Positions 27,970-37,108 of a stretch of DNA of 64,000 nucleotides are shown here, piece by piece. The number at the start of each line of letters is the position of its first letter. Within the stretch, counting starts at the first letter, position 1. The translations under genes and the position numbers were made by a program. The notes under the pieces were generated by a model, which was given only the letters and a program-made list of their open reading frames with translations, made no database searches and was not told the DNA's origin. The DNA comes from Terriglobia bacterium (lineage in GTDB: Bacteria; Acidobacteriota; Terriglobia; JAJPHL01): positions 186,001 through 250,000 of the forward strand of contig JAJPHL010000011.1 of the NCBI GenBank assembly GCA_021325275.1. Reading direction: 5' to 3'.

Positions 27970-28629
27970 TCACATAGCTTTCGAGGGACGTGCTTCCTCC
28001 GCGATGGTCCCAGGGAGTTGAACGCCGAGAAATCTCTCGATTTCGCGCTGCGAATCGGTTTGGTACGCCCCCTGCCATACTTTAAGAACCTTGCCCTCGG
28101 GCGAAACAACAATAGTTTGAGGAGTCGCCGTAAGTTGATAATCCGAGAGAACGCCCGGAGATACGTCAAAAACTAGATCCACGTTGGGTCCTGAGATGTG
28201 GTTCCTTTCCGCATATTCACGCAGTCCGTCACCTGTAACTGACAGACAAAGAAGATGAAACTTGCCGCCGCCCTGCTTGATCAGCGCACCGAGATTCACG
28301 CGATTCCTGGAGCACCATACGCAATGTGGCGAAAGCACGTAAATCACGGTGGGAAGGTTCGCATCCCCGTACCTAATCGCTGCCGCAGACCCGTCCAGAT
28401 GTTTACCGACAATCTGCGGGAAAGCGGTACCAACACCCAGGACCGGGGGTCGCCGGGCAGCAGGCCTTGCACCAGCCAGCGCGATTCGGTGCCACGAAAT
28501 GGCCTTCCAGGCAAGAAGAACGTTACAAGCGACGGAAAGCGACAGGAAAACAAACAGTATGCCAGTGGTTGCACGCGCTCCCACCGATCCGTCAGTTGCC
28601 GGTCCAAAAGCAGGCCATCTTGGCTTCAT
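27970..28629 (-). CDS. Membrane-anchored TlpA/MauD-like thioredoxin
   Basis: The 219-residue product has an N-terminal membrane helix (about 22-43) followed by a thioredoxin-fold domain with the active-site motif SPHCVWCSRN near residue 103. The cis-proline strand reads TATPQTIVV near 172 and the following strand GKVLKVWQGAY. A periplasmic orientation is expected, so the CVWC pair should act on exported disulfides. It is the last gene of a three-gene operon and starts 24 bases after the stop of the propeller-like gene; the obvious client is the cysteine-rich product of the first gene. TlpA versus MauD type cannot be decided. Confidence 0.8.
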   Translation of the reverse strand: MKPRWPAFGPATDGSVGARATTGILFVFLSLSVACNVLLAWKAISWHRIALAGARPAARRPPVLGVGTAFPQIVGKHLDGSAAAIRYGDANLPTVIYVLSPHCVWCSRNRVNLGALIKQGGGKFHLLCLSVTGDGLREYAERNHISGPNVDLVFDVSPGVLSDYQLTATPQTIVVSPEGKVLKVWQGAYQTDSQREIERFLGVQLPGTIAEEARPSKAM

Positions 28630-28653
28630 ACCAACCGATACCTCCTTTATTCT

Positions 28654-29718
28654 TTATGGCTCATTAAACCAAACAACACTCTTGGAATCTGGTACCGGCC
28701 CTCCCTTGAAAAGCAGGAGGTTTCCGTCGCAGCCGATAAAGTCGCGCAGGGTAAATTCAGGCGTCACCATCGGGCTGGTGCCGGAGATCGGCTGCCACGT
28801 AGCGGTTCCGCGATTGAGGACGTAGAGCGTCGTCGGATTCACAGACCAATTCGCATATATGCTTCCCGAATCGGTAATGGCAAGATGGCCGAGTCGCGCC
28901 GCCTTGGCGGAGGTCGAGGACGGGGGCTGCACGCTTAGCCTGCTTACCCCATTCCCGTTATTCTGAATCTCGATCCATTCGCGAGATGCCGGAACGTAGG
29001 CACCGATGCTCGTCGCTGAAGCGCGCAGCGCGCAAAGGCTACCTTCTGCAATCGCGTGAGGCAATGGTTGCCTCGGAAGGGTGGAGCGCATCACGAACTC
29101 GCCAGCGAGTTGGCCGTCAAGCGTGTATTCCTGGAAGACTCCATAGTCTTTCTGCGGGCCACGAGTTGGCAGGGTCCCGGGCCACGGCACGTTCGCTTCG
29201 GCCCCCGGATTCCAGCCTAAAGCCCACACGTGCCCGTCCTGAGAAAGGACGATGCGAATCGGCACAAAAGGGTCCGTCCGGATAACCACGCTTGGCGGTC
29301 CCGGCTGAGTGAACAGCATAATCAAGGAGGCCCGGCTACCGTCGGCATTGAGCGCTCCCGCGGAGGCCGCCAGAAGGCCGCTTCGGGATATCGACATGTC
29401 CATCGGATGTATGTCTACGGAACCAGGAACGCCGAGATCATTTGTCCGTAGAACAGTCCCGTTTGAGCGATAGATCGTAATTGTCGGGGCGCTGAGGTCG
29501 TGGACTAGGCAGAATCCGTTTTCGCATCGTGGTTCTCTTCCGGCAATCTCTGCGGCAAACTGTGCCGAGCGAACAGGCTGACCAAGCGTTTTCGAGGTCT
29601 GTGCCATGCCGCTGGAGCCAACACAAGTCACAATGATCAGCAGCCCAGCGTCACGCACGGTGTCTTTCATAAGGCGCCAGGCTACTTCAAGTTTTTCGCG
29701 TCGCAAACGTGGGTTCAT
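28654..29718 (-). CDS. Exported beta-rich protein, probably a beta-propeller
   Basis: The 354-residue protein begins with an unusually long basic region and a hydrophobic helix (about 24-38) ending in SSGMAQ, compatible with a signal peptide. ATG 29718 has GAGG six bases upstream; ATG 29670 would give a more standard signal peptide. The rest is a series of beta-strand/turn units (RIVLSQDGHVWALGW, LAITDSGSIYANW, TIYRSNGTVLRTN) like a six- or seven-bladed propeller of NHL type, but I recognise no named family. Four cysteines are visible in the mature part, two of them close together (RCENGFC). It lies between the cysteine-rich gene (12-base gap) and the thioredoxin gene. Confidence 0.65.
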   Translation of the reverse strand: MNPRLRREKLEVAWRLMKDTVRDAGLLIIVTCVGSSGMAQTSKTLGQPVRSAQFAAEIAGREPRCENGFCLVHDLSAPTITIYRSNGTVLRTNDLGVPGSVDIHPMDMSISRSGLLAASAGALNADGSRASLIMLFTQPGPPSVVIRTDPFVPIRIVLSQDGHVWALGWNPGAEANVPWPGTLPTRGPQKDYGVFQEYTLDGQLAGEFVMRSTLPRQPLPHAIAEGSLCALRASATSIGAYVPASREWIEIQNNGNGVSRLSVQPPSSTSAKAARLGHLAITDSGSIYANWSVNPTTLYVLNRGTATWQPISGTSPMVTPEFTLRDFIGCDGNLLLFKGGPVPDSKSVVWFNEP

Positions 29719-29730
29719 GCGAGACCTCGC

Positions 29731-30498
29731 CTAGTAATATGGTGGATAACAATACCAATAACCCGGGTAAACACAAGTTGCTCTTTGTTCCGGGTAGCAT
29801 TCGAGGTACGGGTCGCCACCGCAACTCAGACACGTATGGCTATCCCCGCAATACTCGGTATCCCCGCAATCGTCATCGTAATTGCAGCAGCCGGGGGCGC
29901 TATTCCAACAAGTGCTTGAATCGTGGCAGCTACTGCAGTTGCCGGAATTCATGGAATTGCTACAGCCCGAACAATACTCTGACACGTCGGCATCGGTCTG
30001 GTAACACGTTATGTCTTCGTTTCCCGGGTAGGTGTTGCATTCGGCGTGACAGCTCGAACTATAGTTCGGATCGCATTCGCAGTCCGGTACGATGGTTGTT
30101 GAAGAATCGCTGTAGACAGTGGTGTCACACGCACCAACGGAAGTGTCAAAAAGTCCAACTAGGTCTGCCCAGATTTGCGAGAATCCGCTACGTCGTTGTG
30201 CTAACGACCTGACTTGACAACTCGAGTCTCCATCGGCACGGTGGGAAAGCCAGTATAACCCGCCGGTTGAGGGTCTCAGGCCGTCGAACACACCGCGAAG
30301 CGCACCGCCATTTGCCGCGCTCACGACTCGGACGTGCGACCACTGCGCCCGCCTATAAATGTCTCGAAGATCCGGGAGGGCAAGTACTGCTGCGATGCAC
30401 ACGATTGCCCAGACACAGGCTCTGAATAGGACAAGGCCCGCCGCAGCCCCTATTTCACCAATTTCACGACTCTTGTCGGTTCTGGAGGAAAGAAACAC
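29731..30498 (-). CDS. Membrane-anchored cysteine-rich protein of unknown family
   Basis: A GTG start at 30498 is supported by AAGGGAG about six bases upstream. Of 255 residues, about 18-41 form a membrane helix. The C-terminal ~135 residues contain some 20 cysteines in patterns such as DCECDP, YCSGC, NCSSC, GCCNYDDDC and an aromatic end (YPGYWYCYPPYY). The composition (Cys, Ser, Asp, Tyr, Gly, few hydrophobics) suggests a disulfide-bonded exported domain. I do not recognise the family. It heads an operon with a propeller-like protein and a membrane thioredoxin. The row 30001-30060 has 31 G+C of 60 against 40 of 60 in row 31021-31080, so composition is lower than in the neighbouring gene. Confidence 0.7.
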   Translation of the reverse strand: MFLSSRTDKSREIGEIGAAAGLVLFRACVWAIVCIAAVLALPDLRDIYRRAQWSHVRVVSAANGGALRGVFDGLRPSTGGLYWLSHRADGDSSCQVRSLAQRRSGFSQIWADLVGLFDTSVGACDTTVYSDSSTTIVPDCECDPNYSSSCHAECNTYPGNEDITCYQTDADVSEYCSGCSNSMNSGNCSSCHDSSTCWNSAPGCCNYDDDCGDTEYCGDSHTCLSCGGDPYLECYPEQRATCVYPGYWYCYPPYY

Positions 30499-33830: not shown

Positions 33831-33914
33831 CTAGTCCGAACGGAGCACGACTCTGTTTCTAGTCCGCGCGCAGCGCGTCCATGTTGCTAGTCCGCGCGGA
33901 GCGCGTCCATTACA
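33831..33914. repeat. Three 28-bp tandem repeats overlapping the 3' end of the ADOP permease gene
   Basis: Units begin with CTAGTCCG at 33831, 33859 and 33887 (period exactly 28). The two units nearest the gene differ at one of their first 24 bases; the outer one is more diverged. Read on the minus strand, each good unit carries the coding end ATGGACGCGCT(C/G)CGCGCGGACTAG, i.e. MDALRAD plus stop. The repeat therefore consists of duplicated copies of the gene's own last codons. Confidence 0.9.
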
Positions 33915-36331
33915 TCAACCCGCGCGGCGCGGCGCGCCGGCATCGCCGAAGCGACCACCGCGGCCGTGAGCAACACCAGCGCCGACGCGACGACCGTCAG
34001 CACGCCGGGCATTCGGACGTCCTGCACGTAACTGGCGGCGATTTTCGCGAGCGCAAATCCGGCGACGACGCCCGCCACCACGCCCGACCCCGCCATCACC
34101 GCGCCTTGCGATACAACCTGTGTGATTAGGTTCATCGGCTTCGCGCCGATCGCCAGACGAATGCCGAACTCGCGGGTGCGCGCGCTCACCGAAAACGCCA
34201 GTACGCCCGCCACGCCGACCACCGCGATCAGCAGGGCGACGGCCGCGAATCCGCCGAACACAAACGTGTTCAAGCGATCGGGCGTCAGCACTTCGGCGCG
34301 CACGTCCTCGAGCGTCGCGGCCTTCTCCACCGGTTGGTCGGAGGAGCGTTCCCGAATCAATTTCGTGATCGGCGTCACCAGCGCATAGGGATCGCCGTGC
34401 GCGTGCACGAACAGCCGGCCGCCGAAAAAGCCTTCCTGTTGGAACGGCTGATAGATGGTCAGTTGCTGGCCGGGCGTAACGTGTTGGTCGTCGATATCGG
34501 CCGCGACACCCACGATGCGGCGCGGTTCGGTCGAGATGTCAACGAACTTCATCACCGGATCGGTCCAAAAGATGTGGCGATTGATGGCGTCTTGGTTCGG
34601 AAACATTCGCTGCGCCACGCTTTGACTGATGATGACGACTTTTTCGCTGCCCTTCTTGTCGCGATCGTCGAAATCGCGCCCCGCGATGAGCGGCACGCCG
34701 AGCGCGTTGAAGAATCCGCCGGAAATGTAACGCAGCGCCGAGCGCTGATCGTCTTCACCCGCGCCGCGTTGATAGCCATCGGCCGAGAACGTAAAGTTGA
34801 AACCAAACAAGTCACGCCACGGAACCAGCAAACCCACGGCCACGCGATCGACGCCCGGCAGCGCGGAGACATCGCGAATGACATCCTGATAGAAATCGAC
34901 GACCTGTTCCGGCTTCTTCTGGTAGCTCATCACCGGAACATTGATCGCCAGCACATGGCGCGTGTCCATTCCTGTTTGCACGCGTTGCAAGTCGATCAGC
35001 GTCTTTAAGAGCATGCTCGCGCCGGCCAGCAGCACGAACGATGCGGCGATTTGCACCACGGCGAAAGCGCGCAAACGCGCGTTGGTCGAACCGGTGATGC
35101 GTACACCGCCGCTGCTGGAAATTCCGCGCGACGCCCCCGTGCCCGGCAAGCGCGGCACAAACGCGAGCAACACGGACGCCGCAACGGCCAAGCCCGCGCC
35201 CACCCACAGCATGCTCGAGTCGACGGTGAGGTCGAGCGCGCGCACCGAGAATCGCGAGGCGTAGCGGGCCAGAACCGCGACCGCCGGCCGCGCGATGATC
35301 ACCCCCAGCAACGCGCCCGCGCCGCACAACAAAACGCTTTCGGCCAGCAACGTGCGCCGCAGCGCGGCGGCGCTCGCGCCCAGCGCCGCGCGGATCGTCA
35401 GTTCACCTTCCCGGCGAACGCTTCTCGCGAGAATCAAGTTCGCGACGTTTGAGACGGCGATAATAAAGACCAATCCGGACGCCGCCAGCAAAACCCATAA
35501 AACGGTGCTGGCTTTCGAAGTAATTTGCTCGCGCAGCAAGTTGGCGTGAATGCGGAAATCCGCTTTCTGCGAGTACGCCTCGGGATGCTGCTTCACCATC
35601 GAGCCGTGGACGGTCTCGAGTTCCGCACGCGCTTGTTCCACCGTCGCGCCCGGCGCCAGGCGTCCGAACAACTGCGTCATGCGATGGACGCGTCCCTGCA
35701 CCATGGTCGCCGAGAGATGATGCGGGCTGCAAACGATGTTGGCGATGATTTCAGTTTCGGATGGATACGGCACCGAAGGCTCGAGCACTCCCACAACCGT
35801 CGCGGAACGCGAACCGAGGCGCACCACTCTTCCGAGCACCGTGGGATCGCTCTTCAGCGTCGTCGACCAGAAGCGATACGTCAGCACCATCGCGCCGGCG
35901 GCGTTCGGTCCGTCGTCATGCGCGTCAAGTAATCGGCCGATCACCGGATGCAAGCCCACCACGTCGAAATACGCGCCGTCGACCACGCCGGCGGTTACTT
36001 CGCGCGGCTCGCCGAGTCCGACCATGGTGAAACCGATGGACGAAAACTCGCCGAGCTTCGTGATCGTCCTTAAGGCCGGGCGGATATCTTCGATTTCGGG
36101 CACCGAGAAATTGGCGTTCTCCGTGCCGATGCCCATGGCGCTCTGGCGGATGAAGATCAAACGATCTTCTTCGCGATTCACGAGCGGCCGCAGCAAGACG
36201 CCGCGTACCAGAGAAAAAATGGCCGCATTCGCGCCAATGCCGAGCGCGAGCGTGAGGATCACGGTGATCGCCAAACCCTTGGTCCGTGAGAGCGAACGGA
36301 TTGCAAACTTAACGTCATTGAAGAAATTCAT
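33887..36331 (-). CDS. ADOP-type ABC transporter permease (MacB_PCD/FtsX)
   Basis: ATG 36331 is preceded by AAGGAG at good distance and gives 814 residues; upstream extension would run into the divergent YceH gene. The layout is that of the acidobacterial duplicated orphan permeases: MacB_PCD periplasmic domain after the first helix (about 25-260), FtsX-type helices (about 290-420), a second periplasmic domain and a final FtsX block (about 690-800). The start NDVKFAIRSLSRTKGLAITVILTLALGIGANAAIF is typical in its parts. No ATPase is adjacent, as usual for ADOPs. Substrate unknown; family members are often controlled by PadR regulators, none of which is seen here. Confidence 0.9.
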   Translation of the reverse strand: MNFFNDVKFAIRSLSRTKGLAITVILTLALGIGANAAIFSLVRGVLLRPLVNREEDRLIFIRQSAMGIGTENANFSVPEIEDIRPALRTITKLGEFSSIGFTMVGLGEPREVTAGVVDGAYFDVVGLHPVIGRLLDAHDDGPNAAGAMVLTYRFWSTTLKSDPTVLGRVVRLGSRSATVVGVLEPSVPYPSETEIIANIVCSPHHLSATMVQGRVHRMTQLFGRLAPGATVEQARAELETVHGSMVKQHPEAYSQKADFRIHANLLREQITSKASTVLWVLLAASGLVFIIAVSNVANLILARSVRREGELTIRAALGASAAALRRTLLAESVLLCGAGALLGVIIARPAVAVLARYASRFSVRALDLTVDSSMLWVGAGLAVAASVLLAFVPRLPGTGASRGISSSGGVRITGSTNARLRAFAVVQIAASFVLLAGASMLLKTLIDLQRVQTGMDTRHVLAINVPVMSYQKKPEQVVDFYQDVIRDVSALPGVDRVAVGLLVPWRDLFGFNFTFSADGYQRGAGEDDQRSALRYISGGFFNALGVPLIAGRDFDDRDKKGSEKVVIISQSVAQRMFPNQDAINRHIFWTDPVMKFVDISTEPRRIVGVAADIDDQHVTPGQQLTIYQPFQQEGFFGGRLFVHAHGDPYALVTPITKLIRERSSDQPVEKAATLEDVRAEVLTPDRLNTFVFGGFAAVALLIAVVGVAGVLAFSVSARTREFGIRLAIGAKPMNLITQVVSQGAVMAGSGVVAGVVAGFALAKIAASYVQDVRMPGVLTVVASALVLLTAAVVASAMPARRAARVDVMDALRAD

Positions 36332-36404
36332 TTGCGGGCTCCTTATGACACTCCGTTTTTCCACAACGGACGCGGTACCCCCCCCGCGGCCAGTTCGCTT
36401 GCAA

Positions 36405-36434
36405 TTGCAACCAAGTATATACCCGATGTAAGAT
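36405..36434 (+). promoter_or_regulatory. Promoter-like sequence for yceH, overlapping a palindrome
   Basis: TTGCAA (36405-36410), 18-base spacer, TAAGAT (36429-36434), giving a leader of about 26 bases to ATG 36467. The -35 hexamer is half of the 12-bp palindrome TTGCAATTGCAA (36399-36410), a possible operator between the divergent ADOP and yceH genes. Confidence 0.4.
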
Positions 36435-36466
36435 TTTTTCGCGGCCTCCACGTCGCCTTTTGTTCG

Positions 36467-37108
36467 ATGGAAATCGCTCTTACACTTTCGCCCGTCGAAG
36501 TCCGCATCCTCGGCGCGCTCATCGAGAAGGATATGAGCACGCCGGAATACTATCCGCTGTCGCTGAACGCGCTGACCAACGCGTGCAATCAGAAAAACAA
36601 TCGCGACCCGATCGTGTCGTATGACGAAGCCACGGTGCGTGACGGACTCGAGTCGCTGCACCGCCGCGAACTGGCGCGGCCGTCGCGAGGGGAAAGCCGG
36701 GTCTACAAGTACGAGCACAGTCTCGCCGAGGTTTTCAATTTTGGACGCGGCGAAATGGCGGTGATCGCGGCCCTCTTGCTGCGTGGCGCGCAGACGCTGG
36801 CGGAGATTCACACCCGCACTGAGCGAATGCATCGCTTTGACGATGCGGAACAAGTGGAATCGTGCTTGCGGCGGCTGAGCGAACACGATCCGCCGTTGGT
36901 AATCAAGCTGGCCAAGCAGCCCGGATGGCGCGACGTGCGATACACGCACTTGTTTTCAGGTGAACCCGCGATATCCGCCATGCCCGAGGTGCACGCCGAT
37001 GCACCAACCGCTGCTCATGCAGGAGCGGAAAGCCGTTTGGATAAGCTGGAGCGTGAAATCGCCGAATTGCGCGACGCCTTCGAGCAATTCAAGAAAAGTT
37101 TCGAGTAA
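36467..37108 (+). CDS. yceH: YceH family protein (DUF480)
   Basis: 213 residues from ATG 36467. The sequence LSPVEVRILGALIEKDMSTPEYYPLSLNAL is a strong DUF480/YceH signature, followed by NQKNNRDPIVSYDEATV and two winged-helix-like segments. A C-terminal coiled-coil (about 185-213, LDKLEREIAELRDAFEQF) ends the protein. The biochemical function of YceH is not established. A longer in-frame start at 36332 would overlap the divergent promoter and is rejected. Confidence 0.88.
   Translation: MEIALTLSPVEVRILGALIEKDMSTPEYYPLSLNALTNACNQKNNRDPIVSYDEATVRDGLESLHRRELARPSRGESRVYKYEHSLAEVFNFGRGEMAVIAALLLRGAQTLAEIHTRTERMHRFDDAEQVESCLRRLSEHDPPLVIKLAKQPGWRDVRYTHLFSGEPAISAMPEVHADAPTAAHAGAESRLDKLEREIAELRDAFEQFKKSFE

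What the first reader, a model, noticed from the sequence alone, without database searches (positions are those of the whole stretch)
27970..30498. Three-gene island: cysteine-rich anchored protein, exported propeller-like protein and membrane thioredoxin
Three minus-strand genes with gaps of 12 and 24 bases encode a membrane-anchored protein with ~20 cysteines in its outer domain, a beta-rich exported protein, and a membrane thioredoxin with CVWC. The first gene has a strong ribosome binding site at a GTG. Composition is less G+C-rich in sampled rows than in neighbours. The logic recalls two known types of locus: mau genes (cysteine-rich MauA, propeller MauB, thioredoxin MauD) and Bacteroides loci that pair small cysteine-rich NVEALA proteins with six-bladed propellers and redoxins. 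I see no direct homology to either. The inference is that the thioredoxin folds the cysteine-rich domain, which works with the propeller-like protein.
Basis: partly seen in the sequence, partly recalled or inferred. Interest (0 to 1): 0.75.

Follow-up and report, generated by a model that had tools for sequence, protein, structure and literature searches.

The report
Cysteine-rich secreted protein with dedicated thioredoxin
Three neighbouring genes encode an exported cysteine-rich protein, a propeller-shaped exported protein and a membrane thioredoxin; gene pairs of this kind recur across the Acidobacteriota, which suggests an apparently undescribed way in which soil bacteria make disulfide-bonded secreted proteins.

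Summary
The three minus-strand genes are real and as described. They form a low-G+C island: a 255-aa protein with 21 cysteines outside its membrane segment, a 354-aa exported beta-propeller (AlphaFold plus Foldseek), and a 219-aa membrane-anchored TlpA/ResA-like thioredoxin with CVWC. No curated family matches them. Related thioredoxins in Acidobacteriota form one well-supported clade in which every active site reads C-x-W-C. In 13 of 17 such loci an exported Cys-rich ORF lies nearby; ordinary redoxins of the same genomes have one in 2 of 30, both shadow-like. The Cys-rich partners are hypervariable, but 9 of 14, the window included, share CC-x-[YFLWI]-x2-[DEQS]-C (0.09 expected). The third gene is modular: a ~500-aa helical-solenoid protein in nine loci, a 159-aa protein in a second cassette of this genome, a propeller here. 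Propeller homologs also sit beside Cys-rich ORFs without the thioredoxin. No second locus with the exact trio was found. Best reading: a dedicated thiol-disulfide oxidoreductase matures the exported disulfide-rich protein, which works with an exported scaffold. Mau and NVEALA membership is not supported. The pairing is strongly supported; direction of catalysis and purpose are unknown.

The parts
29731..30498 (-). Exported/anchored Cys-rich protein, 255 aa, 23 Cys; carries CCNYDDDC, the motif shared with Cys-rich partners of related thioredoxins
   Evidence: ORF, ribosome site and Cys positions; motif test; segment around VFDGLRP shared with the propeller-linked Cys-rich protein of L071, shuffle p = 0.003; no Pfam or NCBIfam match above cut-off
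28654..29718 (-). Exported beta-propeller, 354 aa, founder of a small Acidobacteriota family
   Evidence: AF2 model with 5-row alignment, pLDDT 64, pTM 0.64; Foldseek PDB top matches NHL-type 6-bladed propellers, best E 5e-8; homologs L033, L071-L073, L103-L106
27970..28629 (-). Membrane-anchored thioredoxin, 219 aa, active site CVWC; member of the CxWC clade of TlpA/ResA-like thioredoxins
   Evidence: Tree: CxWC clade 17 rows, support 100/98; profile matches ResA structures, best E 7e-11; AAAGGAGGT ribosome site
29719..29730 (-). 12-base gap between Cys-rich and propeller genes
28630..28653 (-). 24-base gap between propeller and thioredoxin genes, with AAAGGAGGT

Best explanation
The three genes are one operon-like cassette that makes an exported disulfide-rich protein. 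The Cys-rich protein is exported with its cysteine domain outside the cytoplasm (inferred). The membrane-anchored CxWC thioredoxin, facing the same compartment, acts as its dedicated thiol-disulfide oxidoreductase, making, breaking or reshuffling its disulfides until the native set is reached (inferred from a strong, clade-specific gene association). The propeller is the exported scaffold that works with the finished Cys-rich protein, as the helical-solenoid P500 protein does in most sister cassettes (inferred; the folds are predicted). The cassette is accessory: sparse among genomes, compositionally foreign, and with hypervariable Cys-rich sequences, which suits a secreted effector, ligand or surface-binding protein more than a housekeeping enzyme (inferred).
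For: CxWC thioredoxin clade (100/98 support) with an exported Cys-rich ORF nearby in 13/17 loci; the four without include two cut by contig ends. Control redoxins 2/30, both shadow-like; Fisher p 1.7e-4 (core) and 7.8e-7 (wider set) at equal flanks. Background: 2 such ORFs in 140 kb. Shared motif in 9/14 Cys-rich partners, 0.09 expected, and in none of the Cys-rich ORFs linked to the wider thioredoxins or to propellers only. A second cassette in the same genome with the same order Cys-rich / exported partner / thioredoxin. P500 partner in 9 loci, helical solenoid. Propeller homologs beside Cys-rich ORFs. Propeller-N-terminus/Cys-rich chimera next to a CxWC cassette. Purifying selection on Cys-rich and propeller relatives (dN/dS 0.23-0.40). 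Cassette genes have lower GC3 than most neighbours checked in nearly every locus examined. The genome has a CcdA/DsbD-type membrane reductase.
Against: No biochemical evidence. The exact trio is known from this window only. The window Cys-rich protein has no significant full-length homolog: with L024, shuffle p 0.01-0.03; with L071, one short segment. Two complete core loci (L020, L026) show no Cys-rich ORF by these criteria, and in L024 it lies on the opposite strand. Propeller loci L071 and L073 have the Cys-rich gene but no thioredoxin nearby, so that pair does not always need one in cis. Membrane orientation is not resolved. Propeller model confidence is moderate.
Confidence: 0.6

Rival explanations
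1. The Cys-rich proteins are secreted antimicrobial or signalling peptides (bacteriocin- or RiPP-like); the thioredoxin is a PedC/BdbA-like accessory, and the propeller or solenoid protein a receptor, immunity or delivery protein. This is a narrower form of the best explanation.
For: Small size (66-130 aa) and hypervariability of most Cys-rich partners; AraC-type regulators beside several cassettes; MacB/FtsX-like permeases beside L021 and L026; precedent of PedC with pediocin (PMC4919988) and of candidate RiPP families with mauE/mauD homologs and precursors of at least 8 Cys in Streptomyces (PMC7794033).
Against: The window member is large and membrane-anchored; no double-glycine leader or C39 peptidase-type exporter noted in the window cassette; P500 and propeller have no immunity-protein precedent known to me; no activity data.
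Confidence: 0.25
2. The Cys-rich protein is a periplasmic metal- or redox-buffering protein kept reduced by the thioredoxin (copper chaperone or metallothionein logic, as TlpA does for ScoI).
For: TlpA/ResA-type thioredoxins are often reductants (established knowledge); a CcdA/DsbD-type reductase is present in the genome.
Against: Spacing of the cysteines recalls disulfide-rich extracellular domains (CCNYDDDCGDTEYC) and varies freely among loci; no metal transport or cytochrome genes noted in the cassettes.
Confidence: 0.1
3. The cassette makes a two-subunit periplasmic enzyme of the methylamine-dehydrogenase type: Cys-rich small subunit, propeller large subunit, thioredoxin as MauD-like maturation factor.
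For: Same three kinds of part as MauA, MauB and MauD; 4 of 11 thioredoxins match the NCBIfam MauD model weakly, best E 3.9e-9, and the family reads SP-x-C-x-W-C.
Against: No match of the window proteins to MauA or MauB models at E up to 1; the window thioredoxin itself does not match MauD at 0.01; no MauE or MauG gene noted beside it; Cys-rich sequences hypervariable, unlike an enzyme core; partner usually not a propeller but a solenoid.
Confidence: 0.06
4. Chance neighbours in a low-G+C, loosely coding region.
For: The exact trio is seen once; low GC3 lowers coding scores.
Against: Clade-specific association, shared motif, a second cassette in the same genome, and purifying selection in relatives.
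Confidence: 0.04

Closest known systems
MauD (with MauA/MauB/MauE), methylamine dehydrogenase maturation
   Same: Membrane thioredoxin beside a Cys-rich subunit and a propeller subunit; weak model match for 4 of 11 family members
   Different: No MauA/MauB homology, no MauE or MauG noted, hypervariable Cys-rich partner, partner protein usually a solenoid
PedC / BdbA / BlpGst bacteriocin thiol-disulfide oxidoreductases (PMC4919988)
   Same: Thioredoxin-fold CXXC protein encoded beside a disulfide-bonded exported peptide, believed to set its disulfides
   Different: Different phylum; no dedicated ABC exporter noted in the window cassette; extra exported scaffold; much larger Cys-rich protein here; direct sequence comparison with PedC not done
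decRiPPter candidate families with mauE/mauD homologs and precursors of at least 8 Cys in Streptomyces (PMC7794033)
   Same: Cys-rich small protein with a MauD-like thioredoxin gene in one family and no mau metabolism
   Different: Streptomyces, defined by MauE; no propeller or solenoid partner mentioned in the passages read
ResA/TlpA/StoA thioredoxins
   Same: Fold and N-terminal membrane anchor; best PDB profile matches
   Different: Active site CxWC, whereas the control redoxins have CGPC, CPPC or CEPC; separate clade
Bacteroides NVEALA peptides with 6-bladed propellers and redoxins
   Same: Kind of parts and apparent logic
   Different: No Pfam NVEALA match among the eight cassette Cys-rich proteins tested at E up to 10 nor, at E up to 1, for the window proteins; no paper with the name in the library
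NHLRC2 (Trx-like domain fused to six-bladed NHL propeller; PMC6107167)
   Same: Thioredoxin-like domain plus propeller; an NHLRC2-like gene sits beside the propeller homolog of L105
   Different: One fused protein with CCINC; human NHLRC2 reported inactive in an insulin reduction assay; no Cys-rich partner

Membership tests
Methylamine dehydrogenase (mau) system | MauA small subunit and MauB large subunit homology | tested here: not met
   No Pfam or NCBIfam match for the window proteins at E up to 1
Methylamine dehydrogenase (mau) system | MauD homology of the thioredoxin | tested here: not met
   Window protein: no match at 0.01 and only ResA at 0.011; 4 of 11 relatives match MauD weakly, best 3.9e-9
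NVEALA / Bacteroides propeller loci | NVEALA Pfam domain in the Cys-rich protein | tested here: not met
TlpA/ResA-like thioredoxin superfamily | Thioredoxin fold, CXXC, cis-Pro loop, N-terminal membrane anchor | tested here: met
   Invariant C103, W105, C106, T169, P170; ResA structures E 7e-11; hydrophobic N-terminal segment in the translation
CxWC thioredoxin clade with Cys-rich partner (defined here) | CxWC active site and position in the clade | tested here: met
   100/98 support, all 17 members CxWC
CxWC thioredoxin clade with Cys-rich partner (defined here) | Exported Cys-rich gene with CC-x-[YFLWI]-x2-[DEQS]-C nearby | tested here: met
   Window CCNYDDDC; 9 of 14 partners, 0.09 expected
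Six-bladed/NHL-type beta-propeller | Propeller fold | tested here: met
   blade number not certain at pLDDT 64
Bacteriocin with thiol-disulfide oxidoreductase accessory | Secreted peptide with antibacterial activity | not testable with these tools
   needs an assay
Bacteriocin with thiol-disulfide oxidoreductase accessory | Dedicated peptidase-containing ABC exporter and immunity gene | not tested
   None noted in the ORFs listed around the cassette; no domain search was made for them

The most novel reading that the evidence does not exclude
Acidobacteriota possess an undescribed modular secretion cassette in which a CxWC thioredoxin clade matures fast-diverging disulfide-rich exported proteins that are loaded on interchangeable exported scaffolds (solenoid P500 or propeller), possibly serving as secreted effectors or ligands in soil communities.
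Probability: 0.3. Interest if true: 0.8.

Novelty: new variant of a known kind. Interest (0 to 1): 0.58.

Why it matters
A peptide or protein with its own thiol-disulfide oxidoreductase is a known principle (pediocin/PedC, MauD), but this CxWC clade, its hypervariable Cys-rich partners, the P500 solenoid family and the propeller family have no curated model that fits them, and I found no paper describing them. If confirmed, the thioredoxin gives a handle for mining many exported disulfide-rich proteins in a phylum that is abundant in soil and poorly studied, and it makes the folding of such proteins testable outside model bacteria.

Tried and rejected
Mau and NVEALA homology: no matches. Phage and defence families: none. 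Homology between P500 and the 563/569-aa proteins beside propellers in L072/L106: rejected (hhalign probability 0.2 of 100). Full-length homology of the window Cys-rich protein with L024 or L005: BLASTP none for L024; shuffles weak for L024 (p 0.01-0.03) and not significant for L005. A loose CC-x(4-7)-C motif was too common by chance and was replaced by a stricter one, which was defined after looking at the sequences. Plasmid search with a relative of the thioredoxin: no match. Promoter/terminator scan near chance. PDB sequence search with the Cys-rich protein: one chance-level match. Empty-site check: the same-order genome G001 keeps the HTH and flippase genes of the flank and has no thioredoxin match at 1e-12, but its contig ends too soon to show the joint.

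Full report
OBSERVATION. The three ORFs exist where stated, on the minus strand, with gaps of 12 and 24 bases. The Cys-rich protein has 255 residues and 23 Cys, 21 of them after the hydrophobic segment. Ribosome sites are AGAAGGGAG before GTG and AAAGGAGGT before the thioredoxin gene. Third-position G+C is 0.56, 0.63 and 0.53 in the three genes and 0.72-0.75 in five neighbours.

WHAT THE PARTS ARE. No Pfam, NCBIfam, PHROG or PADLOC family is matched at a meaningful level. The thioredoxin belongs to the TlpA/ResA superfamily: the profile of 11 relatives matches ResA structures (best E 6.8e-11), and Cys-x-Trp-Cys and Thr-Pro are invariant. The middle protein, modelled with four homologs, is an all-beta propeller (pLDDT 64, pTM 0.64); Foldseek gives 224 PDB matches at E<0.001, with NHL-type and other propellers at the top. 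The Cys-rich protein has no structural relative by sequence.

RELATIVES OF THE THIOREDOXIN. Its relatives occur in 13 of 396 sampled genomes of the phylum by single sequence and in 30 of 396 by profile. Named records among the relatives are Acidobacteriaceae and Granulicella sp. S156, so the phylum is Acidobacteriota. In a tree with control redoxins, 17 sequences including the window form one clade (100/98), and all have CxWC, whereas the controls in the tree have a proline before the second cysteine: CGPC, CPPC or CEPC.

ASSOCIATION WITH CYS-RICH PROTEINS. ORFs with a hydrophobic N-terminal segment and at least 6 Cys at 7% or more were scored by script. In 13 of 17 core loci one lies within 2.5 kb of the thioredoxin gene; outside these zones 140 kb held two, both unconvincing. 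Two of the four negatives start at a contig end. In L024 the Cys-rich ORFs are on the opposite strand. With flanks cut to 1.5 kb the counts are 10/17 core and 16/22 wider relatives, against 2/30 for PF08534 redoxins from the same genomes (Fisher p 1.7e-4 and 7.8e-7). The window itself fails the 1.5 kb cut because its propeller gene lies between. Loci were not corrected for relatedness, but the tree shows mostly long, separate branches.

SHARED MOTIF. Cys-rich partners of the CxWC clade are otherwise too divergent to align, yet 9 of 14 contain CC-x-[YFLWI]-x2-[DEQS]-C (window CCNYDDDC) where shuffling predicts 0.09, and none of the Cys-rich ORFs of the wider thioredoxin loci or of the propeller-only loci do. 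The motif was defined after inspection, so the figure is descriptive.

THE THIRD GENE IS MODULAR. Nine core loci have a homologous exported protein of about 500 residues (P500), which AlphaFold models as a helical solenoid (pLDDT 86, pTM 0.84; weak ARM/HEAT-like matches). Seven of these nine also have the Cys-rich ORF; the other two are cut by contig ends. The second cassette in this genome has a 159-aa exported protein between Cys-rich and thioredoxin genes (L005). The window has the propeller.

THE PROPELLER HAS ITS OWN LINK. Nine further propeller matches in seven other genomes were seen, one of them marginal. In L071 and L073 a Cys-rich ORF lies directly upstream on the same strand, in L103 directly downstream, in L072 next to it but divergent; in L033, L104, L105 and L106 none. 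The L071 Cys-rich protein shares VMDVRGQTIKSVFDGIKP with the window's VSAANGGALRGVFDGLRP (shuffle p 0.003). In G390, 0.5 kb downstream of a Cys-rich/thioredoxin/P500 cassette, an ORF joins the first ~50 residues of the propeller family (tblastn E 5e-7 within that locus) to a 14-Cys domain (L019:10304-10696). So the two links meet in a second genome, though as a chimera and not as an intact trio.

SELECTION AND MOBILITY. In the pair L072/L103 the Cys-rich gene has dN/dS 0.40 and the propeller 0.32; in L104/L105 the propeller has 0.23. Cassette genes have lower GC3 than most neighbours checked in nearly every locus examined (in L036 the thioredoxin gene is an exception). The only other genome of the order held here keeps the HTH and flippase genes of the flank (57% and 40% identity) and has no such thioredoxin at 1e-12. 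This fits an accessory, exchanged island.

MECHANISM. Shown: gene structure, association, motif, predicted folds. Inferred: export of the Cys domain, catalysis of its disulfides by the thioredoxin, binding to propeller or P500. The genome has a DsbD/CcdA-type membrane reductase, so a reducing supply is possible; whether the thioredoxin oxidises, reduces or isomerises is open.

COMPARISON. The principle is known: PedC improves pediocin potency and is thought to set its disulfides (PMC4919988); MauD and MauE serve methylamine dehydrogenase, and candidate RiPP families with mauE/mauD homologs have precursors with at least 8 Cys (PMC7794033). Searches of the paper library for an Acidobacteriota system of this kind found nothing. 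I therefore call it a new variant of a known kind.

Noticed in passing
L005:4936-6560 (G000:C55): Second cassette in the same genome: 18-Cys exported protein, 159-aa exported protein, CGWC thioredoxin, same order and strand.
   Followed up: partly
L019:10304-10696: ORF joining a propeller-family N-terminus to a 14-Cys domain, 0.5 kb downstream of a Cys-rich/thioredoxin/P500 cassette; possibly a deletion fusion of neighbouring genes.
   Followed up: partly
L019:6568-7017, L021:314-652, L030:5231-5578, L072:5-382: Small single-domain AraC-type regulators beside cassettes.
   Followed up: partly
L021:2585-4933 and L026:5231-7510: MacB/FtsX-like permeases next to the thioredoxin gene; L021 continues with HlyD-like and ABC ATPase-like genes by eye.
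   Followed up: no
L024:5527-6858: A DsbA-like CPYC thioredoxin gene next to a 22-Cys exported protein whose sequence recalls the window Cys-rich domain (DITCY).
   Followed up: partly
L075-L095: Wider, non-CxWC membrane thioredoxins also sit beside small exported Cys-rich ORFs of quite different sequence; the principle may be broader than the CxWC clade.
   Followed up: partly
L105:4047-7298: NHLRC2-like protein (thioredoxin-like domain plus NHL propeller) encoded beside a propeller-family gene.
   Followed up: no
window 33887-36949: Large FtsX/MacB-like permease reminiscent of the acidobacterial duplicated orphan permeases; not tested.
   Followed up: no
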